From NCBI GenBank assembly GCA_029204225.1, contig MU832570.1, positions 1 through 64,000 on the forward strand: a DNA stretch of 64,000 bases. Direction: 5' to 3'. This DNA is from Diphasiastrum complanatum (Eukaryota > Streptophyta > Lycopodiopsida > Lycopodiales > Lycopodiaceae). Positions 2,468 to 61,755 of this stretch are shown one piece after another. The position numbers and the translations under genes were made by a program. A model generated the notes under the pieces. The model had not been told where the DNA came from. It was given only the letters and a program-made list of their open reading frames with translations, and searched no databases. Numbering within the stretch: position 1 is the stretch's first letter; each line of letters starts with the position of its first letter.

Positions 2468-2469
<2 letters not shown>

Positions 2470-2542
<73 letters not shown>

Positions 2543-2623: not shown

Positions 2624-2662
<39 letters not shown>

Positions 2663-10435: not shown

Positions 10436-10450
10436 GGCTCTTATGACCTT

Positions 10451-10481
<31 letters not shown>

Positions 10482-10600
10482 GCCCTTTTGCTCTGTCGTC
10501 CGCCATCCCTGCTACCAGGGAGGCTCTTCTCTGCAACTGCTTTTGTTTTGTTTTTTTTTCTGAATTCCAACAAACACAAAGAGAAACAAAGAAACAAAGA
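10436..10600 (-). promoter_or_regulatory. Probable 5' UTR with GAA/CTT microsatellite
   Basis: Directly upstream of the chosen start, plus-strand CTT repeats (about 10450-10485; GAA on the coding strand) and a T-rich stretch occupy the leader. Purine-rich leaders of this kind are common in plant 5' UTRs. No TATA box is obvious in the next 200 bp. Confidence 0.5.
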
Positions 10601-15355: not shown

Positions 15356-15690
15356 CATAAAGTAGACTTGAACAACACTTCCTTGCTACTCCTTTGACCT
15401 TACTTGAGTCTTCAATAAGCTGCAAAAACATATCCATAACATCTTTGCCAATTACCTATCCTTTGATGCTCTTCACTAGCTCCAAATTGCCAACTTTCCT
15501 TTTGACTAGTTGAAGCCCTTTGAGATCAACCTCTTGATCTTCAGCTTGACCATCAAAGTCATTGAACAAACTCTGTTTTCTAGATCCATTACTTGATTTT
15601 ACAGCAAGATAACATCCATCCACTTGCATAGCATCATCTAAAGATGCTCCACTCTTAATAAGAGCTTGATACTCAAGATCCATTGCTTGG
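15356..15690 (-). other. RT-replacing segment, left copy (part)
   Basis: This is the portion of the left family-A copy that follows A-L-I-K-S-G and has no similarity to Copia RT. It encodes D-L-K-G-L-Q, G-N-L-E-L-V-K-S-I-K-G and runs to a truncation at 15356. It matches 43200-43520 (plus) and 61560-61745 (minus). Confidence 0.8.
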
Positions 15691-18094
15691 ATCCACTCTT
15701 CTTTCCTTGATTCATCTACACTTGCAGGTTCATCAAAAGAGGCTAGGGAAGCAACATAATTTTCAGAAACTACTTGCTTACCCTTTTCATCATATGTGAG
15801 CCTTGCAGATACTTGTCTTCCCTTGATGTTCTGGTTTTGACTTGATGAACGTCCATCATCATCACCATCCAAAGTAGGATCCTTTACATTAACATCAAGA
15901 ATGTTAGATCCATCCAAACCTTTATCAATCATGCTTGAAGACACTTTTGGAATGTTCTCCTCATCAAAGATGACATCTCTACCAACAATCACTTTCTTAG
16001 TAGAAGGAATGTAAACCTTGTAGGCTTTACTCCCCTCACTATATCCAACAAAAATACCTCTTCCTGAAGATGGATCCTCCTTGGTCCTATCATCAAGAGT
16101 AATGTTGACATAGCATGTGCATCCAAAGGCTCTTAGAAAGTTGACACTCGACCTCCCCTTGAATAGCATCTCAAAGGGTGTCCTTCCGTCCAAAATAGCA
16201 CTCGGCCACCTATTGCACAAGAAATTGGCACACAACCAAGCTTGATCCCAAAATGGTTTGTCAAGATTAGCACTTAATCTTATGGCCTTAGCACTTTCAC
16301 ATAAAGTCCTATTCTTCCTTTTAGCCACTCCATTTTGTCGTGGGGTCCTTGATGTTGTATACTCCCTCTTGATCCTATGCTCATCACAAAAGGCCTTGAA
16401 CTTGGTAGATACGTACTCACCACAATTGTCACTCCTTAAGCACTTGATCCTTGTGGAAAATTGGTTCTCCCTTGCATTCTTGAACTTGATAAAGGCATCA
16501 TACACTTCATCCTTGCTCTTTCGTGAATATATTCAACAAAATCTACTAAAATCATCAATGAATGTTACATATATCTTAGCTCCACTATTGCTAATTTTAG
16601 TAAATCCATGAATATCCGAATGTACAAGTTGAAAAGGCTTTGTAGATCTAGATATAGATCTAGTATAAGGTAGTCTATGTGACTTAGACAAAGCACAAGA
16701 CTCACAAACATGTTTAATGCCACTTAAGGAACTTGGAAGACCTATCACAACCTTCTTTCTTGCGATTACCTCCAATGACTTGAAGTTGAGGTGTCCCATC
16801 CTTCTATGCCAAACCTCTTGAATAGGTATTTGCTCCCTTGCAACACATCCAACTTGGTTAGCAATAACACAAACACCTAGTTTGAACAACTTACCTTGTC
16901 TTTTACCTTTTCCAACCAAGACATCCTTCCTTTTGATCATACAAGCATCTCCATCAAACTCCACCTTGAGGCCTTTACTTGCATTTGACTCACAAAGCAA
17001 ATTCTTGGTAGCAGATGAAATAACCAAAACATCCTCCAAATGAACATTACTATTTGTAGAGAGAAAAATAGAAATTGTGCCAATCCCTTTGATTGCAGAC
17101 TCACCATCATTGGCCATGTAGATCACTCTCTTGTCATCTCCATATGCCAACAAAGAAGTGAAATACTCTTTGTGAAAGTCATGTGTGAACTTGCTCCACT
17201 ATCAATCCACCAAGGATCTAGATCTCCATCATTAGCAAGCATACATGAAGACATCACAAAAGCATCATCATTTGCATCTTGAACATCCAAACCATCTTCT
17301 TCAAAAAGTAAGATTACCTTGTTTGTCTCCTTGATCTCTCTTCTTCTTGTAGCGCTCACTTGCAAAGTGTCCTTTGATGCCAGAATAGAAGCACTTGAGA
17401 TTTGATCTATCCTTCTTTTTGCCACTTGAAGAAGCATCCACTTGATCTTGCCCTTTAGACCACTTACTTTTGGTTTGCCCTTGAATTTGCCCTTTGTGAA
17501 CATAGCATCCTCTTGAAGTGTCGATGTAGGTCCACCTCGCCTTAAAGCCTATATTCTTCATTGATCATGGTCTCTTGAAGATCCATCAAACTTGGCAAAG
17601 TCTTTTTAATAGAAATACTTTGAACAATGTTAGCATGATCATCCAACAAGCTATTAAGAACAACTTGAACAAGCTCTCCTTCCTTAATGCTTTCATCAAT
17701 GCAAGCCAACTCATCATTCAATGCTTTCATCCTCAAAACAAAAGTCTGGACTTTCTTCATTCTTTTGCAAACAGGAAAAAATTTGCCTTCTTAGAGTCAA
17801 CACTCTAAAAGTAGACTTGGATTCATAAAGCTTCTTCAATGATCCCAAGCATCCAAAGATGATGTGCACTTACCAAGTTCCTTTAGAAGCTCAATTGTAA
17901 CATTCATCTTTATCATGTCTAGAGCCTTACCTCACTTGATCTTGTTGTGTTGTTGGTATCTCCTCCAAACCTACAACAATATCCAAAACATCATTCATCT
18001 CAAGATGTAATTCCATCCTCACTTTCCACAATGAATAGTTACTTGAGATAAGCCTATCATTGGCTTCCAACATGACTCCAATTGAGGTTGCCAT
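15356..18094 (-). pseudogene. Family-A Copia element, left copy (gag, protease, integrase, RT replaced)
   Basis: The minus-strand gag start ATG is at 18094 (MATSIGVMLEAND). It is followed by the gag helical region, a zinc knuckle (about 17390), protease W-I-D-S-G-A (17190) and the integrase HHCC and core with L-V-H-S-D-I-H-G and R-S-D-N-C-G-E-Y. Frameshifts break it into several ORFs; the longest is 15456-16505. After A-L-I-K-S-G-A-S, where reverse transcriptase should begin, the sequence switches to an unrelated stretch (D-A-M-Q-V-D-G-C-Y, later E-L-V-K-S-I-K-G) shared with two other places in the window. It is truncated at 15356. The 5' LTR is at 18696-19345. Confidence 0.85.
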
Positions 18095-18683
18095 GTAGCA
18101 ATGACCTGATCTTCTCTTTCAACCTGTTTCAATGCACAAATCACTCCTTTGAACAACAACAAATGCTTTCAAAAGAAATCACCAAGATTTAAAACTATCT
18201 CAAAAATTCTCTTTTAGCACTTATACCAAGCAAATCAACACATAGAATCATGGAATCTTGATCAACCTATGATCTATACTCAATCTTATGAATTTTTCCA
18301 CTTCCTAAGATTGAAACACACTCAAATGAAGTCCAGCAACCTCACTATCTAGAGATTCAATCAAAATTTGGGTTTTGACAAAATCACAAAAAATTGACTA
18401 TTCCAAATATACATGCAAATGCTGAAAATTTGATATGCAATCTATTACCCAGCACTAGGGCTGATCCAATGATCCAAAAATTGGCCAAATCCAGTATGTG
18501 AAATCAAAAATAGAAATGTATCAAGTTTGTAAACCTATATAGGATTTTGATCTACAAAAGATCCAATCTACAAAAGCAAAAAACTCGATTTTGGTGTATA
18601 ATCCCCTCTAGCATGCTCTAGTCTTGATATCTTCACCAAATCATTGATAGATTTGATTTCCTCCGTCATAACCTGAAACACAT

Positions 18684-18695: not shown

Positions 18696-19345
18696 TTTAA
18701 AGGATTTCAGATCATTGATGATCCAATCCATGTCCCTAATCTTTGGTTACAAAAGAAGAAAATCCTACCAATCTCACCAATGTAGAAAAATCAGCATCTA
18801 CACACAAAATGAGATGCAAACTCTAATAGAACTTGATCAAACATGAATCAAATGATAATGTACTATTTTTGTCCATACAAAACTAGAAAGATACTATATT
18901 TCACACGTGTGAATCCAAAAATAGCAAATATAGAACATTCTACACATAGAATTGCATGCAATCACAAGTATAGTGCACCAATGGATAGTAGAACCCAAGA
19001 GAACCATATATAAGCATGAAATGAGATAGAGAAGAGAGAAGATGTGTCTCTCCATGAGTTTCCTCCTTTTATAGCAGGTCCAAAACCTATTTGGCCACTT
19101 GGTTTTCCCTCCAAAATGCTAACCCTACTATTTTTGGATCTAGATTCAAAGTACCCAACATTCAAATTTGAATCTACTCAAACTCGCCTTCTAACTTTCC
19201 CACACTTTCAAAAAGTATTTATTCAAATGAAATTTAGACTAATGAACTTTGAAAAGTCGATCTCTGAGTCTAGAGACAAAGTTGGCCTCAATTTTCCAAA
19301 TATGGAAATATAGCAAGTATGATCAAACTAGTTGAATCTTTCACA
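18696..19345 (-). repeat. 5' LTR of left family-A copy (650 bp)
   Basis: On the minus strand it starts TGTGAAAGATTCAACTAG at 19345 and ends at the PBS. It has a TATA box (CTATAAAAGG near 19070) and a palindromic TTCACACGTGTGAA (18900-18913). It matches 44283-44757 over most of its length. The last bases (CTTTAAA) lack the expected CA, a mutation or local change. It lies inside the internal region of the LTR element whose LTR is at 19828-20995. Confidence 0.88.
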
Positions 19346-19827
19346 CAAAGCAACATTTGTGTTGTTGGGAGAGATGTTATGGCAAGCAATGAGATCTGAT
19401 CCTGCAGTCTCCATCTGACTGTAATATAGGATCTCAGAGAGTGATGTAGAGCTCATTTTACAACCTCTATCTAGCAGTTGTTTAGAATTCCTAGAGAGTG
19501 TGAAATATAGAGCTGAGTTTTACTTCATGGCTTGACAAAGGAAGGCTTAGGTTTGAATATGGGTAGAATTTCAGGCAGTTCCTCAGCTTGTAGAGACCAT
19601 CATTGGAAAGAGGCTCATGGAGTCTGTCCTTCCTGCCTAATTGAAAGACTGCTTGCTTTAACATGCTTTAACAGAGCGGTTGTTGTTTCTTGCAGGTCGT
19701 TTTGCAGGTAGGGTAGTTCGTTTGCAAGGTAGACTGCAGATGAGAACTGTTATGGATCTGTTCAAGAACACTGTTGCAGCAGGTATGGGTTTATGAGGTG
19801 TGGAATTCAAGCAGCAACGGTGCCAAA
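19346..19827 (-). other. Leader of the family-C element, no ORF
   Basis: Between the family-C PBS and the family-A LTR is 480 bp of non-coding leader on the minus strand. Its gag would have followed but the sequence is cut by the family-A insertion at 19345 and does not reappear left of it. Confidence 0.5.
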
Positions 19828-30048: not shown

Positions 30049-31190
30049 TGTTGGCTAATTCTGATGAATCCCCAAGATACTCGGAAAGAGCAACTCAAGA
30101 GCACCTCTCACCTTAGACCGAGGAGGTCTCTGAAAAGACGAGATTAACGAAGACTAAGAGCCGAGTATGAGAGCCGAGAAATGCTAGTTAAGAATGGCAA
30201 GCAAGAACTGTGTAAGCCTCATGGTGAATCCTGGAAGATGGAATGACCATGTAGGAACTAGTATTTCTAGGAAAATGTAATAAATGCAAGTAGACCCCTC
30301 TTAAAGAAAGTAGAGTAAGCCACCTTTTCATGGTAACCTCTAGTGGAGAGCATTATTCCACTTGTAATTTGTGAAATGTAGAAATTCCACTAGGATGCCA
30401 CCTAAGGAGTTCTCTTGCTTATTTAAGAGGCTCCCTCTTTGTGAAGAGGGGCTTTTTGTGTATTGTATCAACTCCATGCTAAAATGAGAAGAGCCTCCAT
30501 GAGTTAGATACATCCATTGAGTTGCTTGATCATGATGGTTTTCTGGAGTGATGCCCCTATGATCATGCCCTTCCATTCATATTGTGTGTGGTTGTGGATT
30601 TAGAGTGGATTAGTTTTCTTGCTTTCCTAGTTGTGGATTAGATTTCATGTTTTCTTGTGGATTAATATAGGAACCAGCATTCAAGAAAACTAAATAGGCT
30701 AGAATTGAGGCATGAATCTTGCATAATCCTCCAACATTCTAGTTCTTGATGTTCTTGGGATGTCCAAGAATCAAAAGACTAGTTGGTTTCTTGATTCTTG
30801 GACCTCTAAAATGCTGTAGATTAGTTCTTGTTTCTTGTTTTGTCAATTTATGCAAGTATAGTAGTGTTTAGGATCTGATTTCAGCTCATTTTGCAGCAAA
30901 GTAGAAGTAGGAATCCATCGTTGTTCAACTGAGCAGTAACGTAGATCATTTGTTGAACGCATTGGCTTGCATTTTGGTTGATTATGCATGTGCAATCAGT
31001 TCAAGAGAGACCCATCCGGATGTCCTCTGACAGACAAGACATAATACTACAACGAGAACCCGTCCCTTCTGCCTGATTTTGGGCTTGAAACAAGAAAGAA
31101 CATTAAGAAGAGTCCACCATCTCTGCTGATAGGTAGAAGAAGTCAGAAAAAGAACTTTTAGAAAACCAACAGATCCTCTGGAGCAGAGGA
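30049..31190 (+). repeat. Family-C LTR, second copy, split by the intact Copia
   Basis: It starts TGTTGGCTAATTC, matches the reverse complement of 19828-20995 along its length, and continues after the Copia insertion as TATGTCAACA (37057-37066), which restores the terminal CA. The total is about 1152 bp against 1168 for the other copy. No PBS follows, so this is a solo or 3' LTR. The insertion point carries the GAGGA duplication of the Copia. Confidence 0.85.
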
Positions 31191-31843
31191 TGTGAAAAAC
31201 TCAGATCCAAAAGATGCTAAAGTTTCATAAAGATCTTGGCCATGGAAGTTATGCACATCTAGATTGAAAAAATGATAGAAATTGTGATGTTAAGCATACT
31301 AAACATCAACTAAACATCAAAATCTGATCATAAGCTTCCACAAACAGAAACTTGCTGTCCCTGTCCGTACTTCAGAGCCTACAACCTGCATTTCACACGT
31401 GTGAAGCCATAGCAACAAAGAAATCACAATTCTAGTGGCTAGAATGCAAGATATGAACAAAAAAGTGAGAGAGAAGAAGATGGATCTTCAAAGAGCATAA
31501 CATTCATTCAATAGAATGAAAATGAGATGTGTACATACTCGTGGAGATGGCTATCTATAGCAGCCATAGTGCCTCTTGGCCACTTGTCTTATGATAGGCT
31601 AAAATTGGGGTCCAATAGGATTCACCCATATACCTAGAAATTTGGTCAAATAGGAATGCACCAAATTATGAGCCAATAGAAGAGCTCCACACTCGACCTC
31701 TTCTAATTAATGTGACCTCAAAAGTAGTGTACACATACTTTGGGCCTCTACATACATGTATGAACCTATCTCTAACTTTTATTTGGCCATAGGCCTACAA
31801 AATCTCAAGTTAGGAAAATACTACTAGTTGACAATTTTTCACA
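31191..31843 (-). repeat. 3' LTR of intact Copia
   Basis: 653 bp, identical by eye to 36399-37051 except C at 31555 (T at 36763). On the element strand this turns CTATAAATAG into CTATAGATAG. It contains the palindrome TTCACACGTGTGAA at 31392-31405. The gag-pol stop codon lies in its first five bases. Confidence 0.95.
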
Positions 31844-34800
31844 CTCCCTCTTCAACTAGTTTTAGCATAGATTTAGAAAGTACACCAAGACTTGTTCTAT
31901 GCTTGAAAAATAAGTCCTTTCCCAATGCTTTGGTAAAGATATCAGCCACACATTCCTTTGATGGGACATGTTCAAGCTTGATCTCTTTTGCCAACACTTG
32001 TTCTCTCACAAAATGGTAAGCCACCTCGATATGTTTGCTCCTTGCATGGAAAACCGGATTGCTTGCTAGACTTTGGGCTGAAAGGTTGTCACAAAAGATG
32101 ATTGGACTCTCTGAAAAATCCAGCAAATGAAGCTCCATAATCATCCTCTTGATCCACACCATCTCCTTTGTGCATGATGTCAAAGCTTTGTACTCGGCCT
32201 CACTAGAAGAAAGTGATATAGTTGCTTGTTTCTTCGACATCCATGAGATAGCTCCATCACCTATGAAAATAGCATGTGCATTTATGGATTTTCTATCCAT
32301 AAGGTCTCCTGCAAAATCTGAATCTGAAAAACCAAATAAGTTAGGTGATGAGCCTCTATAAACAATGCCAAAATCTTTTGTTCCCGAGATGTATCTCAAG
32401 ATCCTCTTTCCTAGTTTCCAATGTTCTATGCTAGGATCTTGCATGAATTGGCTTAATCTACCAACACAATAAGATAAATCAGGTCTTGTGATGGTTAGAT
32501 ATATAAGAGAACCTATTAGCTTCCTATAGAGAGTAATGTCCTCGAAGGATCTTTCATTACCTCTTATAGTTAGCTTTACATGTGATTCCATAGGTGTATC
32601 AATAGGATTTGCATCTACCATATGAAATCTATTGAGAATAGAAATAGCATACTTCTCTTGTGAAATAAAAGTGATTTGAGAAGTTCTAATTACTTCTATT
32701 CCTAAGATATAGCTCAAAAGACCAAGATCATGCACTTCAAATTCCTTTTTTAGTGCTTTCTTGATATCTTCTATATCTTCCTTGTTCCCTCCACTTAAAA
32801 TAATGTCATCCACATAAATTAGAAGGATTGTAACATCATTAGCACTAATTCTAAAGTAAAGTGAATGATCATACTCACTCATAGTGAAGTTTTGAGAAAG
32901 TAGAAAAGAGTTAAGCCTAGCATACCAACTCCTTGGTGCTTGCTTAAGACCATACAAACTTTTTTGTAGAAAACACACATGATTAGGCTTGCTATGAGAA
33001 ACATAGCTCTCGGGTTGCTCCATGTAGACTTCCTCTTCAAGATCACCATTCAAGAAAGCATTAGAAATGTCTAATTGCCAAAGATCCCATCCATAAAGAG
33101 TTGCAAGGGAAATGATTACTCTTATGCTCACCATCTTTGCCACGGGTGCAAAGGTTTCCTCATAGTCAATGCCATGCTCTTGAGCATAACCTTTAGCCAC
33201 CAACCTTGCCTTCAACTTGTTGATAGATCCATCTTGATTTGTCTTTACCTTGAAGATCCATTTGCATCCAATTGCACTTTTGCCCTTTGGAAGCTCCACC
33301 AATCTCCATGTGTTGTTCTTCATAAGTGCTTCAAACTCAAGATCCATTGCTTGGATCCATTCCTCTTTTTGCCTTGCTTCATCTACACATGAAGGTACAT
33401 CAAAAGAAGTTAGGAAAGCATAGTTGGATCCATCCACCACTTGCTTACCTTTGCCATCATAAGTGAGCCTTGAGGGTTTCACTTTATGCCTTGGAGTTCT
33501 CCTTGGAATTTGACTTGAAGAGGCTTCTTCAACATCCACATCCAATGTGTCATCAACTCCATTGTCATCAAGCACATTAGTTGCAACAACACCATCATCA
33601 CTTGAAACAACTTTTGGAATGTTACTTTCATCAAAAATGACATCCCTACTTGTGAACACTTTCTTGATTGAAGGAACATAAATCCTATATGCTTTGCTTA
33701 CTTCACTATAACCAACAAAAATGCCCTTTCTTGAAGATGGATCCTCCTTAGTTCTATCATCAAGAGTAATGTTGAAGTAGCAAATGCATCCAAAAGTTCT
33801 TAGAAACTTGACATTAGGCTTCGTACCAAACAAAGCTTCAAAAGGGGTTTTTCCTTCCAATACAACACTTGGCCATCTATTGCATAGGAAATTTGCACAC
33901 AACAAAGCATCACTCCAAAAAGGTTTAGGAAGATTAGCATTCAATCTCATTGCCTTTGCACTCTCACACAAGGTTCTATTCTTCCTCTCGGCCACTCCAT
34001 TTTGTTGTGGTGTTCTTGGACATGTGTACTCCCTCTTGATCCCATGCTCATCACAAAAGGCTTTGAATTTGTTAGAAATGTATTCACCACCATTGTCGCT
34101 CCTCAAGCATTTGATTTTGGTTGTAAATTGAGTCTCAATAGCAACTTTGAACTTGACAAACACATCAAACACCTCATCCTTGCTCTTTAGTAGATAAACC
34201 CAACAAAATCTACTAAAATCATCAATGAAAGTTACATACATCTTAGCACCTCCATTGCTAATTGTAGTAACACCATGAATATCCGAATGCAAGAGAGAAA
34301 AAGGCATCTTAGATCTAGATATAGATCTAGTATATGGCAATCTATGTGATTTAGACAAAGCACATTCTTCACAAACATGATTCAAGCAAGTAAGAGACTT
34401 GGGAAGTCCCCTTACTACCTCCTTTTTGGCTATTTCCTCCAAGGCCTTGTAGTTGAGATGTCCCATCCTTTTATGCCATACCTCTTGAATTGACATTTGT
34501 TCATTTGCCATGCATCCAACTTGGTTAGCAACAACACATGCATCAAGCTTGAACAATTTCCCTTGCCTTTTCCCTTTTGCAATGATACTACACCCCTTTT
34601 TGATCAAGCAAGCATCACCATCAAACTCAACTTTGAATCCTTTGTCAAGCATTTGGCTTACACTAAGTAAGTTCTTGGTAATGGATGGAATGAGCAAAAC
34701 ATCTTTCAATTCTATATTCCTATTTGTAGAAAGTGAAATAGGAATTGTGCCAATCCCCTTGATTGCACACTCACCATCATTTGCGGTATAGATTACCTTC

Positions 34801-35789
34801 CTATCACCATCAAATGCCATTAAAGATGAAAAATACTCTTTATGATATGTCATATGAGAAGTGGCTCCACTATCAATCCACCAAGGATCAATGTCTCCAT
34901 GATTAGCCAACAAGCAAGATGACATAACAAAAGCATCATTTGAAAGAAGCTCATCCCCACCCTCATCAATAGTTAGATTGGTTTGCTTTTCCCCTTGATC
35001 CCTCTTTTTCTTAAAACAATCACTAGCAAAATGCCCTTTGACTCCACAATAGAAACATTTTAGCTTAGATCTATCCTTCTTTTTGCCAAAAGTAGAGTGC
35101 TCACCTTGGTCTTGCCCTTTAGACCAATTGCTTTTACCTTTGCCCTTGAACTTGCCTTTAGAGAACATTGCCTCCTCTTCTCCTCCTTGAGATGTAGAAG
35201 ATGCTCCCACTCTTGTTTGCAACCTGAATTCTTCAGCCAACAAGACCTCTTGCAAGTCTCCAACACTTGGTAAACATTTTTGGATAGCATAACTTTGAAC
35301 AAGATTAGCATGATCATCCAACAAGCCATTGAGAATCACTTGAACAAGCTCCTCATTATTTATGCCATCATTAATGCATGCTAACTCATCATTCAATGCT
35401 TTAACTCTCAAAACAAAAGCATGTCCATTCTCACTCTTCTTTTGCATACAAGAAAAGATTTGCCTTCTTAAAGTCAACACTCTAGAAGTAGACTTGGATT
35501 CATAAACCTTCTTCAAGGCTTCCCAAGCTTCACTAGATGATGTGCACTTACCAACCTCTTTGATAAGCTCATTTGTCACATTCATCTTGATCATGTGAAG
35601 GGCTTTCTTTGCCCTCTTGTCATACCTCAATTGTTCTTGAGGTGCCAAAGGTCTCTCCTCCACACCTACAACAATATCCATCAACTCATTCATCTCAAGC
35701 AAAGACTCCATCCTTACTTTCCAAGTAGAATAGTTGAGGGAGGTAAGCCTATCATTGCTTTCCAACATGTAGCCTCCATTTGTAGCCAT
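31839..35789 (-). CDS. Copia gag-pol polyprotein, 1316 aa, uninterrupted
   Basis: One ORF encodes the whole polyprotein. Gag (UBN2-like) covers about residues 1-230, and the zinc knuckle C-F-Y-C-G-V-K-G-H-F-A-S-D-C about 245-258. Aspartic protease W-I-D-S-G-A-T is near 304-310. Integrase HHCC is about 439-477, and its core has catalytic D in L-H-S-D-I-H-G (about 502), D in R-S-D-N-G-G-E-Y (about 565) and E in N-G-V-A-E (about 601). The RT has the F-A-P-V-A-K-M region and Y-V-D-D-I-I-L-S-G near 993. RNase H has F-S-D-S-D-F-A-G-D near 1155 and S-S-S-E-A-E-Y. The D-D-E and YVDD residues are all present. The length suits plant Copia elements with gag and pol in one frame. The terminal stop TGA is supplied by the 3' LTR. 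The protein would replicate the element in cytoplasmic particles and insert its cDNA in the nucleus. Confidence 0.97.
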   Translation of the reverse strand: MATNGGYMLESNDRLTSLNYSTWKVRMESLLEMNELMDIVVGVEERPLAPQEQLRYDKRAKKALHMIKMNVTNELIKEVGKCTSSSEAWEALKKVYESKSTSRVLTLRRQIFSCMQKKSENGHAFVLRVKALNDELACINDGINNEELVQVILNGLLDDHANLVQSYAIQKCLPSVGDLQEVLLAEEFRLQTRVGASSTSQGGEEEAMFSKGKFKGKGKSNWSKGQDQGEHSTFGKKKDRSKLKCFYCGVKGHFASDCFKKKRDQGEKQTNLTIDEGGDELLSNDAFVMSSCLLANHGDIDPWWIDSGATSHMTYHKEYFSSLMAFDGDRKVIYTANDGECAIKGIGTIPISLSTNRNIELKDVLLIPSITKNLLSVSQMLDKGFKVEFDGDACLIKKGCSIIAKGKRQGKLFKLDACVVANQVGCMANEQMSIQEVWHKRMGHLNYKALEEIAKKEVVRGLPKSLTCLNHVCEECALSKSHRLPYTRSISRSKMPFSLLHSDIHGVTTISNGGAKMYVTFIDDFSRFCWVYLLKSKDEVFDVFVKFKVAIETQFTTKIKCLRSDNGGEYISNKFKAFCDEHGIKREYTCPRTPQQNGVAERKNRTLCESAKAMRLNANLPKPFWSDALLCANFLCNRWPSVVLEGKTPFEALFGTKPNVKFLRTFGCICYFNITLDDRTKEDPSSRKGIFVGYSEVSKAYRIYVPSIKKVFTSRDVIFDESNIPKVVSSDDGVVATNVLDDNGVDDTLDVDVEEASSSQIPRRTPRHKVKPSRLTYDGKGKQVVDGSNYAFLTSFDVPSCVDEARQKEEWIQAMDLEFEALMKNNTWRLVELPKGKSAIGCKWIFKVKTNQDGSINKLKARLVAKGYAQEHGIDYEETFAPVAKMVSIRVIISLATLYGWDLWQLDISNAFLNGDLEEEVYMEQPESYVSHSKPNHVCFLQKSLYGLKQAPRSWYARLNSFLLSQNFTMSEYDHSLYFRISANDVTILLIYVDDIILSGGNKEDIEDIKKALKKEFEVHDLGLLSYILGIEVIRTSQITFISQEKYAISILNRFHMVDANPIDTPMESHVKLTIRGNERSFEDITLYRKLIGSLIYLTITRPDLSYCVGRLSQFMQDPSIEHWKLGKRILRYISGTKDFGIVYRGSSPNLFGFSDSDFAGDLMDRKSINAHAIFIGDGAISWMSKKQATISLSSSEAEYKALTSCTKEMVWIKRMIMELHLLDFSESPIIFCDNLSAQSLASNPVFHARSKHIEVAYHFVREQVLAKEIKLEHVPSKECVADIFTKALGKDLFFKHRTSLGVLSKSMLKLVEEGV
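31844..31857 (-). promoter_or_regulatory. Polypurine tract of intact Copia
   Basis: On the element strand, purine-rich GAAGAGGGAG sits immediately before the 3' LTR, as required for plus-strand DNA priming. The same GAAGAGGGAG precedes the family-A LTR at 44273-44282. Confidence 0.9.
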
Positions 35790-36386
35790 GTTGCAATGAT
35801 TGATCTCTGATCTTTGACCTGTTCCAATGCACTAAGCACTCTCTTGAATCAACAAATGAAACACAAGAAGAAATCACAAAGATTTGGAACCTAAATCCTT
35901 ACTTTTTCTCTCTTTTCCTCACTTTTTTCTCAATTTTAGCCACTAGTTTTATGATTTCTTGATCAAACCAAGACCAAACCTCAATATACTTGCTTTTCCC
36001 TCACTCCTAAGATTGAAATACACTCTTGAATCATTCAGCAAACTGAAAATCAGAGGGTTACATCAATTTTGAAGTTTTTGACATGAAGAAGCAAGAAATT
36101 GAATCAAAAAACTATATGCTAGAATGGAAAACTAATAGGATCTTGTTGGATCTTGCATCTCCCTCTTTCCAAAACAATTTTTGTCTCCTTATTCTGATAA
36201 GTATAGAGGGAATTCGCCCTACTTCAATTGAAATGCATACAAATGATGTTTTGATCACAAAGATCCAATTTCTACACATAAATCAACAAGATTTTTAGCT
36301 AGAAACTTGATTGGAATGCTACAAAAGCAAACTCGCCCACAAATCTCTTCTAAATCTGGCAAAACCTGCACATTTGGCCGCCTAAT
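35790..36386 (-). other. 5' leader between PBS and gag of intact Copia
   Basis: About 600 nt of untranslated leader on the minus strand with no long ORF, A/T-rich. A leader of this length may carry packaging signals, but none can be named from sequence. Confidence 0.6.
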
Positions 36387-36398
36387 GCTCTGATACCA
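36387..36398 (-). promoter_or_regulatory. Primer-binding site of intact Copia
   Basis: Minus-strand TGGTATCAGAGC directly abuts the 5' LTR and is the standard plant PBS for initiator tRNA-Met. Confidence 0.95.
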
Positions 36399-37051
36399 TG
36401 TGAAAAACTCAGATCCAAAAGATGCTAAAGTTTCATAAAGATCTTGGCCATGGAAGTTATGCACATCTAGATTGAAAAAATGATAGAAATTGTGATGTTA
36501 AGCATACTAAACATCAACTAAACATCAAAATCTGATCATAAGCTTCCACAAACAGAAACTTGCTGTCCCTGTCCGTACTTCAGAGCCTACAACCTGCATT
36601 TCACACGTGTGAAGCCATAGCAACAAAGAAATCACAATTCTAGTGGCTAGAATGCAAGATATGAACAAAAAAGTGAGAGAGAAGAAGATGGATCTTCAAA
36701 GAGCATAACATTCATTCAATAGAATGAAAATGAGATGTGTACATACTCGTGGAGATGGCTATTTATAGCAGCCATAGTGCCTCTTGGCCACTTGTCTTAT
36801 GATAGGCTAAAATTGGGGTCCAATAGGATTCACCCATATACCTAGAAATTTGGTCAAATAGGAATGCACCAAATTATGAGCCAATAGAAGAGCTCCACAC
36901 TCGACCTCTTCTAATTAATGTGACCTCAAAAGTAGTGTACACATACTTTGGGCCTCTACATACATGTATGAACCTATCTCTAACTTTTATTTGGCCATAG
37001 GCCTACAAAATCTCAAGTTAGGAAAATACTACTAGTTGACAATTTTTCACA
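36399..37051 (-). repeat. 5' LTR of intact Copia, with promoter
   Basis: On the element strand the TATA box CTATAAATAG lies at 36769-36760, followed about 160 bp later by TTCACACGTGTGAA (36613-36600), a palindrome around the G-box CACGTG. Upstream (U3) is roughly 280 bp. The LTR ends TTTTTCACA next to the PBS. Confidence 0.93.
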
Positions 37052-38084: not shown

Positions 38085-38255
38085 TTACCTACATGATATC
38101 AGAGCGAAAGCTCTAATACTTGATATCTTTCGCGATATCAAATCGATATCATATTCTTTAGTTCCTTTGGTCGTTTTAGTGTCGAGAATTGATTTTCTAT
38201 TGTTGGCATTACTACATCTTAGCGTCATCAATACAATCGATAGACTAAGTTCTAG

Positions 38256-40800
38256 ATGGAGTCTCAAAGTAAAGCTAGTCTTATCGTAGACAAGCTGAAT
38301 GGATCCAATTATCGTTTGTGGAAAGATGAAGTAAAACGAGTTATGGGATGTTGTTACAGGGTTAGAAGTAAAACCTGAAGATGACACAGAAGACTCAAAG
38401 TGGAAATCAAAAGATGGTAAAGCTTTCGTGTTTATTATCCTCAATATACCAGATACACAAATTGGACAGATAGCTAAAGCTAAAAATTCAAAAGACGTTT
38501 GGGACTTCTTGAACTCACTATATGACGTGAGGGACGGAACTACTAAGTTACATCTACAGAGGAAATTCTTCACAATCAAGATGTCTGATGGTGATTCTCT
38601 TTAGAGTCACATTAACCAGTTTAATAATCTCTTGCAATAGATGGCCGCTGTCGGATCAGTCATAGACGATCAAGATGCAATTATGACATTGCTTTCAAGC
38701 TTGCCCTCTACATATGAGAATTGGGTGATGATCATGTCGACACACTCAGATTTAACTCCTACTAGAGCTATCACTACTATGTTGCTGCAAGAAAACAATA
38801 GAAGAAGTCAAGACACTTTGTCTACTTCCTCCTTTCAAACTCTATATGTCAACAAAGGCTATAAGTGAAAGAAGCAAAAAAGCTCCAAGAAGGCTACATC
38901 GAATCAGAAACAGACTCAAAGTCAAGAACAATCATCAAATCCACAGTCAAAGAAGAAGATGTTTTGCAGGTATTGCAAGCGCAATAACCATGAGATCAAG
39001 GATTGCCAAATTCTCCAAGCAAAGAATGCAGCCAAGCAACCTGATCAACAAGCAAACACAGTTTCATCATCTCCCCAGGTCGACGTGGATGAAGACGCAT
39101 TCATGGTCAAAGATCAAAGCACATTTTTGGATGATTCATGGTTTCTTGATTCTGGAACAACTCAACACATGACCAGTCAACGTGAGATTTTCAACTCCTA
39201 CACGCCTTACAACACAAAGAAATTTGTTCATCTTGGTGACAATAGTACTCACACTATTGAAGGTGAAGGTACTATAAGATTGTGTTTCCAGCATGATCAA
39301 TTCAAACTACTATCAAAGGGCTTATATATTCCTAAACTCTCTACAAATCTGTGATTAGTAAGTAGAACTACAGATTTAGGACATAAGGTAGAATTCGAAT
39401 CTGATCAATGCAAAATTATTGATAGGAGTAATAAGATCCTTACACTCGGTAAAAGACAGGGTTACTTATATAGATTGGCACATTGTTATTTTGAGTCTAG
39501 TCAAGACTTGAACACCTTTGTTCTAGTCAATAAAGCATTACTATGGCAACATCGCTTAGGACACTTGAATTATGCATCTGTTTTGAACATGTCTAGACAA
39601 TCCATGGTTTTTGATCTCGACTATCCTTCTAGTAAGGTCAATCTCCCTGTCTATCATAGCTGCATCTTTGGAAAGCAGGCTAGGATTCCTTTTAGATCAA
39701 ACCATAGGCATGCAACAAAAGGTCTGTTAGATGTTGTTCATATAGATATATGTGGACCTATGAAAAGTTGTTAGATGCAAAGTATTTCATTACTTTTATT
39801 GACAAATTCTCCAGAAGAACAGTTGTTTCATTAAACAGAAATCAGAGGCTTTAATCAAATTTAGACAATTCAAAGAGCATGTTGATAATCAAACTGACAA
39901 ATGAATCAAAGCACTTAGGTCAGATAACGAGGGAGAATACATCTCCACCACATTCAAGGTATTGCCTTAACAACGACATTGAGCAACAATACATTACCTC
40001 CTATTTGCCTCAATCAAATGGTCTTTCTAAGAGAAAGAACAGAACCTTAGTTGAATCGGCAAAGTGATTTATCACATGCGACACTTTCGAAGTCCTTATG
40101 GGCTGAAGCTATTTCAACAACAACCTATATTCAAAACAGATGTCCTACTAAAGATCTCTCAGACAAAACACCATTCGAAGTTTCGACATGTACCAAACCT
40201 TCCTTATCAAACCTACGAGTTTTTGGATGTACTGCTTTTGCACAGATACCTCGTGATCTCAGGAAGAAGCTTGACTTCCAGATCATCAAATGTGTTTTCA
40301 TCAGCTACACTACTTCAGATCAAGCCTACAAGTTGTTCGATCCCATCGAGTCAAAGATATTCCCTAGCCGGGATGTCATCTTCATCGAAGATCAATTTCA
40401 AGACCTCAAAGGAAAGGGTAGTCCCCATGTAACCGGCTTGTCAGATTCTCCTAACATATTGAACTTTCCAGTTCCTCAGTCGACTATTCCCATTGAAGGT
40501 CCAAGCTCATCTACTCTCGACGAACACCATATCAACGACGAATTAGAAGATGATGATGTTGCAGTTCAGCAACTACAGTATGATGGAAATGATCAACTTC
40601 CTCTATTACCCAGAAGATCTTCAAGAGCTAGCAGACCACCTATCAAGTATATCGACGAGTCTGCAGCCTACCTTGTTCAGGAACCAACGTCTATCCAAGA
40701 GGCACTCAGTCAGCCTGATTCAGATATCTGGAAAGAAGCTATGGATAAAGAGTATTAATCTCTTATCAAGAACCAGACATGGACAATTGTCGAATTACCC
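38256..40800 (+). pseudogene. Family-B Copia gag-pol, truncated at the start of RT
   Basis: Reading from ATG at 38256 (MESQSKASLIVDKLNGSN), it shows gag with a stop at about 38343, S-S-L-P-S-T-Y-E-N-W-V (38700) and a knuckle C-R-Y-C-K-R-N-N-H-E-I-K-D-C (38965-39005). The protease follows, W-F-L-D-S-G-T-T (39140), then pre-integrase, and integrase with H-I-D-I-C-G-P and N-G-L-S-K-R-K-N-R. The linker (Arg/Ser-rich, 40080-40730) ends in W-K-E-A-M-D-K-E-Y, stop, and N-Q-T-W-T-I-V-E-L-P. At 40801 it changes directly into the gag of a different family. Stops at about 39354 and 39775 and several frameshifts make it non-functional. RT is missing beyond its first residues. Confidence 0.87.
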
Positions 40801-43196
40801 ATGGCAACCTCAATTGGAGTCATGTTGGAAGCCAATGATAGGCTTACCTCAAGTAACTATTCATTGTGAAAAGTGAGGATGGAATCACTTCGTGAGATGA
40901 ATGATGTTTTGGATATTGTTGTAGGTTTGGATGAGAGACCAACAACAAACAAGATCAAGTGAGGTATGACAAGAGGGCCAAGAATGCTCTAGACATGATA
41001 AAGATGAATGTAACCATTGAGCTTCTAAAGGAACTTGGTAAGTGCACATCATCTTTGGATGCTTGGGATTCATTGAAAAAGCTTTATGAATCCAAGTCTA
41101 CTTTTAGAGTGTTGACTCTAAGAAGGCAAATCTTTTCCTGTTTGCAAAAGAATGAAGAAAGTCCAAGTACTTTTGTTTTGAGGATGAAAGCATTAAATGA
41201 TGAGTTGGCTTGCATTGATGAAAGCATTAAGGAAGGAGAGCTTGTTCAAGTTGTTCTTAATAGCTTGTTGGATGCTCATGCTAACATTGTTCAAAGTATT
41301 TCTATTAAAAAGACTTTGCCAAGTTTGACGGATCTTCAAGAGATCTTGATCAATGAGGAATATAGGCTTCAAGCAAGGTGGACCTACATCGACACTTCAA
41401 GAGGATGCTATGTCCACAAAGGGCAAATTCAAGGGCAAAACGAAAAGTAAGTGGTCTAAAGGGCAAGATCAAGTGGATGCTTCTTCAAGTGGCAAAAAGA
41501 AGGATAGATCAAAGCTCAAGTGCTTCTATTGTGGCATCAAAGGACACTTTGCAAGTGAGTGCTACAAGAAGAAGAGAGATCAAGGAGACAAGCAAGGTAA
41601 TCTTACTCTTGATGAGGATGGTTTGGATGTTCAAGATGCAAATGATGATGCTTTTGTGATGTCTTCATGTATGCTTGCTAATCATGGAGATCTAGATCCT
41701 TGGTGGATTGATAGTGGAGCAAACTTTTCACAAAGAGTATTTCTCCTCTTTGTTGGCAATTGGAGATGACAAGAGGGTGATTTACACGACCAAGAATGTT
41801 CATTTGAAGGATGTCTTGTTTATTCCATCTATTACCAAGAATTTGCTTAGTGTGAGTCAAATGCAAGTGAAGGCCTCAAAGTGGAGTTTGATGGAGATGT
41901 TTGTATGATCAAAAGGAAGGATGTCTTGGTTGAAAAAGGTAAAAGGCAAGGGAAGTTGTTCAAACTAGATGCTTGTGTTATTGTTAACCAAGTTGGATGT
42001 GCTGCAAGGGAGCAAATACCTATTCAATAGGTTTGTCATAGAAGTATGGGACACCTCAACTTCAAGTCATTGGAGGTAATGACAAGAAAGAAGGTTGTGA
42101 TAGGTCTTCCAAGTTCCTTAAGTGGCATCAAACATGTTTGTGAGTCTTGTGCTTTGTCTAAGTCACATAGACTACCTTATACTAGACCTATATCTACATC
42201 TACAAAGCCTTTTCAACTTGTACATTCGGATATTCATGGATTTACTAAAATTAGCAATAGTGGAGCTAAGATGTATGTAGCATTCATTGATGATTTTAGT
42301 AAATTTTGTTGGATCTATCTACTAAAGAGCAACAATGAAGTGTGTGATGTCTTTATCATGTTCAATAATGCAAGGGAGAACCAAGTTTCCACAAGGATCA
42401 AGTTCTTAAGGAGTGACAATGGTGGTGAGTACATATCTACCAAGTTCAAGGGCTTTAGTGATGAGCATGGGATCAAGAGGGAGTATACAACATCGAGGAC
42501 CCCACAACAAAATGGAGTGGCTGAAAGGAATAATAGGACTTTATGTGAAAGTGCTAAAGCCATGAGGTTAAGTGCTAACCTTGACAAACCATTTTTGGAT
42601 CAAGCTTTGTTGTGTGCCAATTTCTTGTGCAATAGGTGGCCGAGTGCTATTTTGGACAGAAGGACACCCTTTGAGATGCTATTCAAGAGGAGGCCGAGTG
42701 TCAACTTTCTAAGATTCTTTGGATGCACATGCTATGTCAACATTACTCTTGATGATGGGACCGAGGAGGATCCATCGTCAAGAAGAGGTATTTTTGTTGG
42801 ATATAGTGAGGTGAGTAAAGCCTACAAGGTTTACATTCCTTCTACTAACAAAGTGATTGTCGGTAGAGATGTCATCTTTGATGAGGGGAAAATTCCAAAA
42901 GTGTCTTCAAGCATGATTGATAAAGGTTTGGATGGATCTAACATTCTTGATGTTGATGTAAAGGATCCTACTTTGGATGGTGATGATGATGGACCTTCAT
43001 CAAGTCAAAAGCCAAGGAGAACATCAAGGGAAAGACAAGTACCTGCAAGGCTCACATATGATGAAAAGGGTAAGCAAGTAGTTTCTAGAAATTATGTTGT
43101 TTTTATAACCTCTTTTGATGAACCTACAAGTGTAGATGAGGCAAGGAAAGAAGAGGAGTGGATCCAAGCAATGGATCTTGAGTATCAAGCTCTTAT
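40801..43196 (+). pseudogene. Family-A Copia element, right copy: gag, protease, integrase
   Basis: It starts exactly at the gag ATG (MATSIGVMLEAND) with no leader or 5' LTR of its own. A stop and frameshift disturb gag near 40869 and 40960. Gag helices (40959-41380), zinc knuckle C-F-Y-C-G-I-K-G-H-F-A-S-E-C (41521-41565) and protease W-W-I-D-S-G-A (41700) are followed by a frameshift. The integrase is open from 42046 to the linker, with H-S-D-I-H-G, R-S-D-N-G-G-E-Y and N-G-V-A-E. Compared with the intact Copia it keeps the same domain order and about 70-80 percent similar residues by eye, up to D-L-E-Y-Q-A-L-I-K. RT should start here but does not. Confidence 0.88.
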
Positions 43197-44080
43197 TAAG
43201 AGTGGAACGTCTTTTGGAGGATCTTCTTGTATAGATGATGCTATGCAAGTGGATGGATGTTATCTTGATGTAAAATCAAGTAATGGATCTAGAAAAAAAA
43301 ATTTGTTCAATGACTATGATGGTCAAGTTGAAGATCAAGAGGTTGATCTCAAAGGGCTTCAACTAGTCAAACGGGAAGTTGGCAATTTGGAGCTAGTGAA
43401 GAGCATCAAAGGAGAGGTAATTGGCAAAGATGTTATGGATTTGTTTTTGCAGCTTATTGAAGACTCAATTAAGGTCAAAGGAGCATCAAAGAAGTGATTT
43501 TCAAGTCTGCTTTACTTGCTCTATCTCATGTTTGAGCATTTTCATGTGGATATGGTCAACAAACTAGTTACATTGGTGAGCATCATTTTGATGTTGGATT
43601 TGTACTAGATTTTTTGGCTGGTTTTGTTGATGAAAATGAAGCTATTGGAGGTTCATTATGTCACTCATTCATGTCCAAGTCATCAAGTGGTGATGGCATC
43701 TTATGGCAAGATGGAGATGGAGGCTCATTCATGGAGTGTCATTGTGGATACATGGCAACAAAGGACAAAGGAGGAGGAGACATGCAAGAAAATGTTGATC
43801 ACTCACATTTATTGTTTTTTTGCTATATTTTTTCAAAGAGTTCAGAGTTGAAAACATGGTGGAATCATTTCATTTACATTCTATTTGATTCTTCATGTAT
43901 TAGTTACTTCTTGACATGTAAAATTGATGTAAGAAATAGTGAAGCATCCCAAGTGGACACTATTCTCTATATCAATTATGGTTGTTTCTATTTTGAGCAT
44001 TACATGATCATTGGAAGGAGATCTATTCTTAGGAAGAAGATCATTCTTATGATGGATCAAAGTTCTATGATCAAAACTAT
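43197..44080 (+). other. Non-Copia segment replacing RT and most of RNase H (family A)
   Basis: After A-L-I-K-S-G-T-S the integrase frame continues for about 100 codons of unrelated sequence (D-D-A-M-Q-V-D-G-C-Y, N-L-E-L-V-K-S-I-K-G, G-K-D-V-M-D-L-F) to a stop at 43495-43497. It goes on as 43500-44080, with a stretch A-G-F-V-D-E-N-E-A-I-G-G-S-L in another frame. No YVDD or other RT motif occurs. The stretch to about 43690 is shared with the 61.3-61.7 kb region and its start with 15356-15690. Origin unknown; a captured host fragment is one option. Confidence 0.8.
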
Positions 44081-44287
44081 GCTAGGAGCAAGCATGTTGA
44101 GGTGCAACAACATTTTGTGAGGGAGCAAGTCATTGCAAAGGAGGTGGAGCAACAACACGTGTCCTCAAGGGAATGTGTAGCTGATATCTTCACCAAAGCA
44201 GTGGGAAAGGACTTGTTCATGAAGCATAGGACATCACTTGGAGTGTTATCAAAGTCTATGGTAAAACTAGTTGAAGAGGGAGTGTGA
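44081..44287 (+). pseudogene. Family-A RNase H C-terminus
   Basis: Copia sequence resumes as Y-A-R-S-K-H-V-E-V and runs 69 codons to L-V-E-E-G-V and a TGA at 44285-44287, matching the last residues of the intact polyprotein (K-H-I-E-V-A-Y-H-F...). The final Val codon and stop overlap the first five bases of the LTR, as in the intact element. Confidence 0.9.
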
Positions 44288-44757
44288 AAGATTCAACTAG
44301 TTTGATCATATTTGCTATATTTTCATATTTGGCAAATTGAGACCAACTTTGTTTTTAGACTCAGAGATTGACTTTTCAAAGTTCATTAGTCTAAATTTCA
44401 TTTGCATAAATACTTTTTGAAAGTGGAGAAAAGTTAGAAGGCGAGTTTGAGTAGATTCAAAGTTAAATGTTGGGTACTTTGAATCTAGACCCAAAAATAT
44501 TAGGGTTAGCATTTTGGAGGGAAAATCAAGTGGCCAAATAGGTTTTGGACCTGTTATAAAAGGAGAAAACTCGTGAAGAGACACATATTCTCTCTTCTCT
44601 ATCTCATTTCATGCTTATATATGGTTCTCTTGGGTTCTACTATCCATTGGTGCACTATACTTGTGATTGCATGCAATTCTATGTGTAGAATGATCTATAT
44701 TTGCTATTTTTGGATCCACACGTGTCAAATATAGTAGCTTGCTAATTTTGTATGGAT
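44283..44757 (+). repeat. 3' LTR of right family-A copy (U5 end lost)
   Basis: It begins TGTGAAAGATTC and matches the left-copy LTR through the TATA box (GTTATAAAAGG near 44555) and the G-box palindrome (44714-44727, one change) up to TTGTATGGA. Beyond about 44757 similarity stops. No downstream target duplication was found. Confidence 0.85.
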
Positions 44758-59949: not shown

Positions 59950-61231
59950 TGGTATATGTCGTGCTATATCAACAAGGTTAATATAGATTCTGTAGAAAAT
60001 AATGTCGAATCCACAGAGGACAGTGTTAGAAAGTTATGTATTTGTTGGTACAATTTATGATTTATTTCGAGTAAAGTGACTTTGGGCGTTAATCTGGTTG
60101 TCAACAGACATTAGAAAGTAACTAGTATTACTTGTGTTGGGGTGTGTAGTGTTAATAATTTCAGAACAACAGTCTTGCCTCTATCAAATCGAATGAAATG
60201 CGTTCTACAGGTGAGATGTTATCAGAGTAGTACATCTATACTACACTCCGGCTGATTAAGGTGTCAACAGAGAGTTGAGAAATGTTCGATGCATTCGTGG
60301 TTGTGCAGTCAATCAGTTAATCGCATTCACGGACTGTTCATTTCTAGACAGAAGTCCTCAACAACTTAAGTCCAAGGTTATGGTTAAAGAACATAAAGAG
60401 TTCTAGAGCACATTAGAAACTTATGTCAGTTACAAGCAGGAACAGATCAAAGACTCAATTCTTCAATTAGGGACTGACATCTCAAATGTATACATACAGT
60501 TTTATTCAATGATCGTGCTAGACTGCACCAAATGTAGATGTTATTCGAGTGCCGAAAAGAAAGTATTCGCGACAAACAAATAACATGATTTTAAGACAGT
60601 TCTTTAGAGCATGTTTTACGGATACACAACAAACGATTGTAATGCGCTAGAGAGTCTGTCTGACCAGAGAGTAATTCATGTAATGCGTTAGAGATTGCTA
60701 GTAGACTCAGGATCACTCACACTCAACAGTGCGGAGAACAGAGATAAGGGAGAATAACTCTCAACACTCTATTCACTTCTTCAACCTCTTACAAATACAT
60801 AAACTCTTCTCTCTCGATGGTCGAGACTGAAGTGTGTGATCAATATATGTTCTATGGGGCGAACAAACACACATCTAAAACAACAGGGGCGTCGCTCTCG
60901 TGAAAAGGTCTAGTTAACAATTAGGTTGAGTATATGTTCAATTATACCATAAGAGGTATATTTAACTAAGAGTTAAAATTACTCTAGTTTAAAATGTCGA
61001 TTCATATCTAGTCGTTTCGCGTGGAGGGCCTAATAAAGGCTATCCAAGGCAATGTTTTCCCTTTTAAAGGTTTTGTCCTTAAATACAAGACAAGTACTTA
61101 GGAGATATATTCTCGAAAAATGACTAAGGCCTCTTAATGATTTATATTTATCCAGCTCATATCGTCATTTTCGAGTATGTCATGCCATATTTAGGTTGAT
61201 ATTCAGTATTTAACAATTTTGTGGCATCACA
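59950..61231 (-). repeat. 5' LTR of the Gypsy element, about 1.28 kb
   Basis: On the minus strand it starts TGTGATGCCACAAAATTG at 61231 and ends ...GACATATACCA at 59950, followed by the PBS and gag in the expected order. A second LTR copy is not in the window because the 3' end of the element is lost after RT entry. Confidence 0.72.
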
Positions 61232-61755
61232 TCCAGCACCACATGACTCCATAAACCAAATAGATTGCACTAGTCCATCTTCAAGATCTACTTGACACAA
61301 AAAAATGACCATAAATTCACCAAAAAATGACAATCTTCAAGTATTGGCACAAGTAGCTCAACACTTGAGAACTTAGGCATGGATGAGTGATATAATGAAC
61401 CTCCAATAGCATCATTTCCATCCACAAAACCAGCCAAGAATAGTACAACTCCAACAATAAGATATTGCAAGACAATGTAGCTAGTTTGTCCATATCTTGA
61501 CAATTTGCACACATTCACATGAAATAGCTCAAACATGAGATAGAACAAGTAAAGTAAACTTGAACAACACTTCCTTGCTGCTCCTTTGACCTTACTTGAG
61601 TCTTCATACGCCTGAAAAAATAGATCCATAACATCTTTGCCAATTGACCTTTCTTTGATTCTCTTGACTAGCTCCAAATTGCCACATTTCCTTTTGTGTT
61701 GTTGAAGCCCTTTGAGACTAACCTCTCGATCTTCCTCTTGACAATCGCGCACCAT
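61232..61755 (-). CDS. Third copy of the RT-replacing segment, open as one 155-codon ORF
   Basis: The minus-strand ORF runs from ATG at 61755 to a stop at 61288. It encodes V-S-L-K-G-L-Q, G-N-L-E-L-V-K-R-I-K, G-K-D-V-M-D-L-F-F and K-V-K-G-A-A-R-K, then a hydrophobic stretch L-I-V-G-V-V-L-F-L-A-G-F-V-D-G that could be a membrane segment. It is similar in protein and DNA to 43300-43690 but without Copia sequence on either side. It has no interruption where the family-A copies have one. Function unknown; it may be a piece of the donor locus or of another element. Start codon and coding status are uncertain. Confidence 0.55.

What the first reader, a model, noticed from the sequence alone, without database searches (positions are those of the whole stretch)
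43197..44080. Copia family whose reverse transcriptase is replaced by a recurring foreign segment
Seen: both family-A copies (15356-18094 minus, 40801-44287 plus) match the intact Copia from gag through integrase. Both switch at the same codon (A-L-I-K-S-G) to sequence with no RT motif, and the plus copy returns to Copia for the last 69 codons of RNase H. Two independent copies with the same breakpoint argue that the replaced form itself amplified. The segment occurs a third time at 61232-61755, where it is an open ORF with no Copia flank. Known: Bs1-type elements show that LTR elements can capture host DNA and move as RT-less forms. Inference: family A is a non-autonomous lineage carrying a captured segment, mobilised by the intact relative.
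Basis: partly seen in the sequence, partly recalled or inferred. Interest (0 to 1): 0.85.

Follow-up and report, generated by a model that had tools for sequence, protein, structure and literature searches.

The report
RT-less Copia family sharing a module
In what is probably a clubmoss genome, one jumping-gene family lost its copying enzyme, carries in its place a piece shared with a second crippled family, and still spread to over a thousand places, which suggests that such elements persist by borrowing enzymes and swapping parts.

Summary
Both window copies and 28 of 28 fetched genome copies (three are duplicates of others) switch from Copia integrase-tail sequence to the segment at the same codon. 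A 35-base junction pattern has 1,195 matches (control 0), so the RT-less form itself amplified. The genome is very probably the clubmoss Diphasiastrum complanatum.

In its longest form family A is LTR-gag-PR-INT-[1,059-bp segment]-RNase H-LTR: the segment replaces codons 828-1121 of the window's intact Copia, nearly the whole RT domain. The window copy is a shortened variant. Nine of 20 loci hold an LTR pair; two have perfect 5-bp target-site duplications.

The "captured host DNA" reading is not supported. The segment is the 3' part of the long ORF of a second high-copy, RT-defective Copia family (B); the "third copy" is a fragment of B. Best explanation: recombination (template switching) between A-like and B-like RNAs, then amplification in trans. 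Variants shared by copies show third-codon-position excess in gag, PR-INT and RNase H but not in the segment, so the segment looks like cargo. The intact Copia is an unproven helper: its LTR is only ~50% like A's. New variant of the semi-autonomous LTR retrotransposon kind.

The parts
40800..43209 (+). Family A plus copy: gag, protease, integrase and integrase tail (5' truncated, no 5' LTR here)
43210..44085 (+). Segment S (bases 1-499 and 664-1059 of the long form seen in L016) in place of RT
44079..44287 (+). Remnant of RNase H, last 69 codons (1248-1316 of the intact Copia)
44283..44756 (+). Matched part of the 3' LTR of the plus copy
15641..18095 (-). Family A minus copy: gag to integrase tail
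15358..15640 (-). Segment S bases 23-305 in the minus copy, then broken off
18872..19346 (-). Presumed 5' LTR of the minus copy, by position (94% to 44282-44756)
61228..61746 (-). Third occurrence: segment bases 109-630, a fragment of family B (93-94% to B copies), unrelated flanks
31191..37051 (-). Intact Copia (ORF 31839-35789, 1316 codons; LTRs differ at 1 of 653 positions), used as reference; absent from the other haplotype

Best explanation
Family A is a Copia lineage in which nearly the whole reverse-transcriptase domain was replaced, probably once, by the 3' module of the long ORF of a second RT-defective Copia family (B). The likely event is template switching between two co-packaged RNAs at short microhomologies. 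The replaced form kept LTRs, tRNA primer site, PPT, gag, protease, integrase and (long form) RNase H, and was then copied many times with RT supplied in trans. The swapped-in segment is carried along; it shows no sign of being needed as a protein in A. Shown: structure, single 5' breakpoint, copy number, LTR/TSD integration, the segment's presence in B, the selection contrast. Inferred: a single event, the direction B to A, template switching as mechanism, RT supply in trans.
For: Same 5' breakpoint in 30 of 30 A copies examined, three of them duplicates, and 1,195 junction matches. LTR pairs in 9 of 20 loci, about 650 bp where complete, TG..CA ends, PBS TGGTATCAGAGC and PPT; perfect 5-bp TSDs in L025 and L028. 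LTR divergence 0.009-0.078 over nine A pairs. Segment bases 3-1056 of 1059 recur at about 87% in 3 of 3 B copies fetched with flanks, inside B's long ORF that ends ...LVEEGV like Copia pol. In B the frame runs through the segment in L029 (371 codons), with one stop in L030 and a frame change near the 3' end in L031, whereas in 11 of 12 A copies translated it breaks in the segment's first half; this favours B as donor. A and B LTRs are 77-79% identical with the same PBS/PPT. Variants shared by >=3 of 27 copies, by codon position: gag+PR-INT+RNase H 16/12/37, p=8e-5; segment 26/40/20, p=0.98; Fisher 4e-5; with the integrase tail (12/11/13) included 28/23/50, p=6e-4, Fisher 3e-4; singletons flat (195/180/188).
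Against: No RT-bearing element with A-type LTRs was found, so the RT source is unidentified; the 16 of 16 RT-bearing copies checked have the intact Copia's LTR, but they were picked among exact matches to that Copia's own sequence (16 of 100 listed, of 1,521 counted), and the targeted search did not complete. The integrase tail alone shows no codon-position excess. The constraint signal could come from gene exchange with autonomous elements rather than from A's own proteins. A B-type protein (P0004) also lacks the segment's middle, so exchange may have happened more than once. TSDs match at only 4 of 5 bases in L016, L026 and the L019/L022 pair.
Confidence: 0.8

Rival explanations
1. Host-gene capture (Bs1 type): the segment is a transduced piece of a host gene, later shared between A and B.
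For: Most of the segment has no recognisable Copia domain and no Pfam match above the curated cut-off (best below it DUF4315, E 0.12). It is an orphan: the only protein-database hits are a B-type copy annotated as a gene and one ENA fragment; its N-terminal part had none.
Against: Every copy fetched lies in LTR element A or B, or is a fragment of B. Its end is the Copia pol terminus, and its start weakly resembles the Copia integrase tail. A low-copy host gene could hide behind thousands of repeats, because only the best 40 places are scored.
Confidence: 0.1
2. The segment is a degenerate Copia RT region that diverged beyond recognition inside B, so B is an old decayed pol and A received only its C-terminal part.
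For: B's part upstream of the segment resembles INT (z 7.4) and RT (z 5.8) with BLOSUM62, 0 of 300 shuffles each (also 0 of 300 with BLOSUM45), with the YVDD motif lost; the segment ends like pol and may start like the INT tail.
Against: Pfam finds no RT or INT there. The body of the segment shows no relation to RT or RNase H (72-157 and 189-249 of 300 shuffles reach the score). The INT-tail likeness of the start is weak: 2-3 of 300 shuffles with BLOSUM62 on L029, but 73-198 with BLOSUM45, and 31-46 with BLOSUM62 on L030. RT-like sequence lies upstream of that start, so the order is not colinear.
Confidence: 0.25
3. Ordinary debris: unrelated insertions of the same repeat in each Copia copy.
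For: Many copies are broken, and the third occurrence is a bare fragment.
Against: One breakpoint in 30 of 30 copies and 1,195 junction matches with control 0; 9 of 20 loci bounded by LTR pairs.
Confidence: 0.01

Closest known systems
RLG_Sabrina_SA / RLG_WHAM of wheat (PMC9744471; passages and section 2.7 read)
   Same: High-copy LTR elements lacking RT and INT but coding for GAG-protease (Sabrina_SA is called semi-autonomous there); Sabrina variants carry unique segments in place of genes.
   Different: They are Gypsy and keep only GAG-protease; family A is Copia and also keeps integrase and, in the long form, RNase H: nearly only RT is replaced.
RLG_Quinta with autonomous partner RLG_Cereba (PMC11302176; passages read)
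   Same: Family B has a similar plan: gag plus a long ORF part of unknown function.
   Different: Gypsy, centromeric, with a proposed autonomous partner; B is Copia, also has protease, and has RT- and INT-like relics.
Bs1 of maize (PMC13317346, passages read)
   Same: LTR element carrying sequence that is not its own.
   Different: Bs1 carries pieces of identified host genes; here the segment is shared with another retrotransposon.
BARE-2 and Veju recombinants (PMC13317346, passages read)
   Same: New subgroups attributed to abnormal template switching between packaged RNAs.
   Different: There an LTR region (BARE-2) or an unknown sequence (Veju) was gained; here nearly the whole RT domain was exchanged.
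Non-autonomous RLC_Angela of wheat (PMC9744471, passages read)
   Same: Non-autonomous relatives of intact elements (Copia by its RLC code), thought to depend on them.
   Different: Angela-n has a highly degenerate CDS; in A a constraint signal persists in gag, PR-INT and RNase H.

Membership tests
LTR retrotransposon | Paired LTRs with TG..CA ends, PBS, PPT | tested here: met
   LTR pair in 9 of 20 fetched A loci (some partial); PBS TGGTATCAGAGC, PPT
LTR retrotransposon | Target-site duplication | tested here: met
   Perfect 5 bp in L025, L028 and the intact Copia; 4 of 5 in L016, L026, L019/L022; not assessable in the partial pairs
Ty1/Copia superfamily | gag-PR-INT-RT-RNase H order with Copia-type domains | tested here: inconclusive
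   gag, PR, INT and RNase H in Copia order and similarity; RT absent
Non-autonomous / semi-autonomous LTR element | Lacks an essential enzyme yet amplified | tested here: met
   No RT match within the A element in 20 of 20 fetched loci (some have other Copias nearby); 1,195 junction matches
Non-autonomous / semi-autonomous LTR element | Autonomous partner with matching LTRs/PBS | tested here: inconclusive
   PBS, PPT and LTR ends match the intact Copia; LTR bodies about 50%; no A-LTR element with RT seen, targeted search unanswered
Bs1-type host-gene transduction | Segment derives from a host gene | tested here: inconclusive
   Traced to family B, an LTR element; a masked low-copy search could not be run
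RLG_Quinta-like gag+DUF element (family B) | gag ORF plus long non-RT/INT coding part within LTRs | tested here: met
   L029-L031: gag, PR, then ORF with no Pfam match above cut-off in L030 (best below it: NUMOD-like, E 0.0027, 17.7 of 27 bits); paired LTR and PBS seen in L031 only, the 5' LTRs of L029 and L030 lie outside the stretch

The most novel reading that the evidence does not exclude
A and B form a two-part system that lives by division of labour: A supplies gag, protease, integrase and RNase H under purifying selection, a partner supplies RT, and a shared, otherwise unknown module circulates between RT-less families because it does something in cis (packaging, or RNA stability by keeping the frame open) or as a fast-evolving protein in B.
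Probability: 0.2. Interest if true: 0.75.

Novelty: new variant of a known kind. Interest (0 to 1): 0.5.

Why it matters
It gives a clean natural case of an LTR retrotransposon that lost essentially only its reverse transcriptase, shows a constraint signal in its other domains and still reached more than a thousand places, very probably in a lycophyte; the paper searches made here (listings only, capped) showed no such system there. The same module in two RT-defective families shows modular exchange between non-autonomous elements. It also warns that an orphan ORF in a retroelement need not be a captured host gene: a B-type copy is annotated as a hypothetical protein of the plant.

Tried and rejected
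Host-gene origin: protein searches with the segment (none, P0004 and P0005) and with B's X part (none), and Pfam scans gave no host family. Structure prediction of the segment: mean pLDDT 31, not used. Viral-contig search with P0005: nothing. Independent debris: rejected. Codon-position test: run several times as copies were added or dropped. A first version with 21 copies at the >=2-copy threshold looked flat in INT (26/26/30) and led me to think that A was unconstrained; with 27 copies thresholds 2, 3 and 4 each gave p below 0.01 for gag+PR-INT+RNase H, and with the integrase tail included p was 0.014, 0.0006 and 0.0003. The threshold and the grouping were chosen after seeing data. Dropped before the final count: L009 (other haplotype of the window copy), L022 and L036 (99.8% and 100% duplicates of L019 and L034). 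Not obtained: counts of medium and long 3' junctions and of B ends, A-like elements with RT, and the DNA search for more B copies; the genome search did not complete.

Full report
Genome. The window lies in a 1.74-Gb genome of 5,176 contigs. The best protein hit of the segment's 3' half in family B, P0004, is named 'hypothetical protein O6H91_02G086300 [Diphasiastrum complanatum]' and sits on a contig of 83,909,787 bases, the length of contig C2 here. The identification rests on that. The window contig C1052 looks like an alternative haplotype of C17 at about 22.8 Mb (98.8-99.6% identity).

Observation. Family A matches the intact Copia through gag, protease and integrase and then switches to the segment after A-L-I-K-S-G / A-L-M-K-S-G, where the intact Copia reads A-L-M-K-N-N-T-W-R-L. 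I aligned both window copies, 20 of 20 fetched loci (L009-L028) and the intact Copia: the A copies switch at the same place. Eight of eight further loci (L032-L039) align through it. Three of the 28 are duplicates (L009, L022, L036). The loci were best matches to a query with only a few Copia bases at its start. Independently, a 35-base junction pattern with up to 3 mismatches has 1,195 matches in the genome, with 0 for the reversed control. For comparison, the corresponding integrase-RT junction of the intact Copia has 1,521, control 0. Both counts depend on the pattern chosen.

Anatomy of family A. In the long form (6 of 20 loci) a segment of 1,059 bp replaces codons 828-1121 of the intact Copia; the Pfam RT domain of that Copia spans 825-1068. 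RNase H follows from codon 1122, as one open stretch in L016 and L025. Thirteen of 20 lack segment bases 499-664 (some lack more) and one is cut off after base 499. RNase H starts at codon 1122 in 7 of 20, at about 1248-1260 in 10, and is missing in 3. The truncated form joins at ATGCTAGGAGCA, a 12-base word present both at the long form's segment end and inside its RNase H. The window plus copy is of the reduced type and has no 5' LTR; the minus copy breaks off inside the segment.

Transposition. Nine of 20 loci hold an LTR pair by my cut-off, three of them partial (L010, L012, L013); the full LTR is about 650 bp, TGTGAAAG..TTTCACA, followed by TGGTATCAGAGC and preceded by GTTGAAGAGGGAG. L025 and L028 have perfect 5-bp duplications (TATAG, TAAAG); L016, L026 and the L019/L022 pair match at 4 of 5. 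K2P between LTRs of the nine pairs runs from 0.009 to 0.078; L019 and L022 are one duplicated insertion (99.8% alike, same 3' flank). So RT-less elements were integrated over a long period.

Origin of the segment. A search with the third copy (61200-61800) gave 3,142 first-look candidates; 40 were scored, the best other than the window and its haplotype at 93-94%. Three of these fetched with flanks (L029-L031) are a second LTR element, family B: Copia gag and protease, then an ORF part without clear INT, RT or RNase H by tblastn, containing segment bases 3-1056 at about 87%, ending ...LVEEGV immediately before a 3' LTR. The paired LTR and the PBS were seen in L031 only; the 5' LTRs of the other two lie outside the stretches. 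L030 is open over 996 codons, then one stop, then 206 more codons; L029 is open over 371 codons across the segment; L031 changes frame near the segment's end. Three further B copies (L040-L042) also carry most of the segment. The third copy is segment bases 109-630 with unrelated flanks, i.e. a fragment of B. Upstream of the segment B has a stretch resembling integrase (z 7.4) and one resembling RT (z 5.8) with BLOSUM62, each reached by 0 of 300 shuffles, and the YVDD motif is gone; Pfam reports neither. The segment's start weakly resembles the integrase tail: 2-3 of 300 shuffles with BLOSUM62 on L029, but 73-198 with BLOSUM45 and 31-46 with BLOSUM62 on L030; its body resembles nothing tested. 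Pfam has no match above a curated cut-off and a fold prediction failed (mean pLDDT 31).

Direction and mechanism. In B the frame is continuous through the segment in one of three copies and nearly so in another; in 11 of 12 A copies translated it breaks in the first half of the segment. This favours B (or a B-like element) as donor and A as recipient. A and B LTRs are 77-79% identical, so the RNAs could plausibly be co-packaged. Template switching is inferred from replacement inside the element and short shared words at the joins; it was not observed. P0005, from a 1,041-bp ENA contig of unknown organism, aligns without gaps across the truncated-form junction at 66% amino-acid identity with L028, so the fusion may be older than this species.

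Selection. On 27 A copies (29 aligned; L022 and L036 dropped as duplicates; L009 left out before alignment) I counted variants by codon position. Shared by at least 3 copies: gag+PR-INT+RNase H 16/12/37 (binomial p 8e-5), segment 26/40/20 (p 0.98), Fisher 4e-5. At thresholds 2 and 4 the direction is the same (p 0.002 and 0.0004 against 0.997 and 0.97). Singletons are flat (195/180/188; segment 93/86/80). The integrase tail, left out of that sum, shows no excess of its own (12/11/13); with it included the totals at threshold 3 are 28/23/50, p 6e-4, Fisher 3e-4. An earlier run on 21 copies was not clear. So the Copia domains were constrained in the amplifying lineage or were refreshed by exchange with constrained elements, and the segment was not constrained in the frames tested. 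No autonomous family was available as positive control. In B (6 copies) shared variants show no clear excess and the sample is small; pairwise dN/dS among three copies was 0.3-0.6 in gag-PR and 0.5-2.2 in the segment.

Helper. The window's intact Copia is very young: one difference between its LTRs, absent from the C17 haplotype, which shows the empty site. It belongs to a homogeneous family: 16 of 16 RT-bearing copies checked carry the same LTR at 99% or more, but these were picked among exact matches to its own junction on C1 and C2. Its LTR is only about 50% like A's, though PBS, PPT and LTR ends agree. It may help A now, but an earlier or different RT source is at least as likely. The search for RT-bearing elements of A type did not complete.

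Known comparators. Wheat Sabrina_SA and WHAM (GAG-protease only), Quinta (gag + DUF1), non-autonomous Angela, BARE-2 and Veju recombinants, and Bs1 (PMC9744471, passages and section 2.7; PMC11302176 and PMC13317346, passages). The seven paper searches made (lists capped, titles and abstract starts seen) did not show a Copia family lacking only RT, nor a description of these families in Diphasiastrum; most subscription papers, possibly including the genome's own, are not in that library.

Verdict. A real, amplified, RT-less Copia family; the swapped-in part is shared with another retrotransposon family and not demonstrably from the host. New variant of a known kind.

Noticed in passing
31191-37051: The intact Copia is polymorphic between haplotypes: the C17 haplotype (L009) has the empty site, so it inserted very recently.
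   Followed up: yes
38216-43154: This 4.9-kb stretch, including the gag-INT part of the plus copy, is absent from the C17 haplotype (L009), probably a deletion there.
   Followed up: partly
40051-40800: A different Copia's sequence runs up to the start of its RT region and is joined directly to the gag start of the family A plus copy.
   Followed up: no
L031, L040: Two of six family B copies share an internal deletion (L030 reverse-strand coordinates about 1577-2108), so B has subfamilies too.
   Followed up: no
20016-20995 and 30049-31041: Inverted pair of about 1 kb at 94-97% identity, an unidentified repeat.
   Followed up: no
8858-10597: 579-aa ORF that looks like a host gene (from memory it resembles an Integrator subunit; not tested).
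   Followed up: no
2317-3000: GA/TG microsatellite tracts that yield an artefactual ORF.
   Followed up: no
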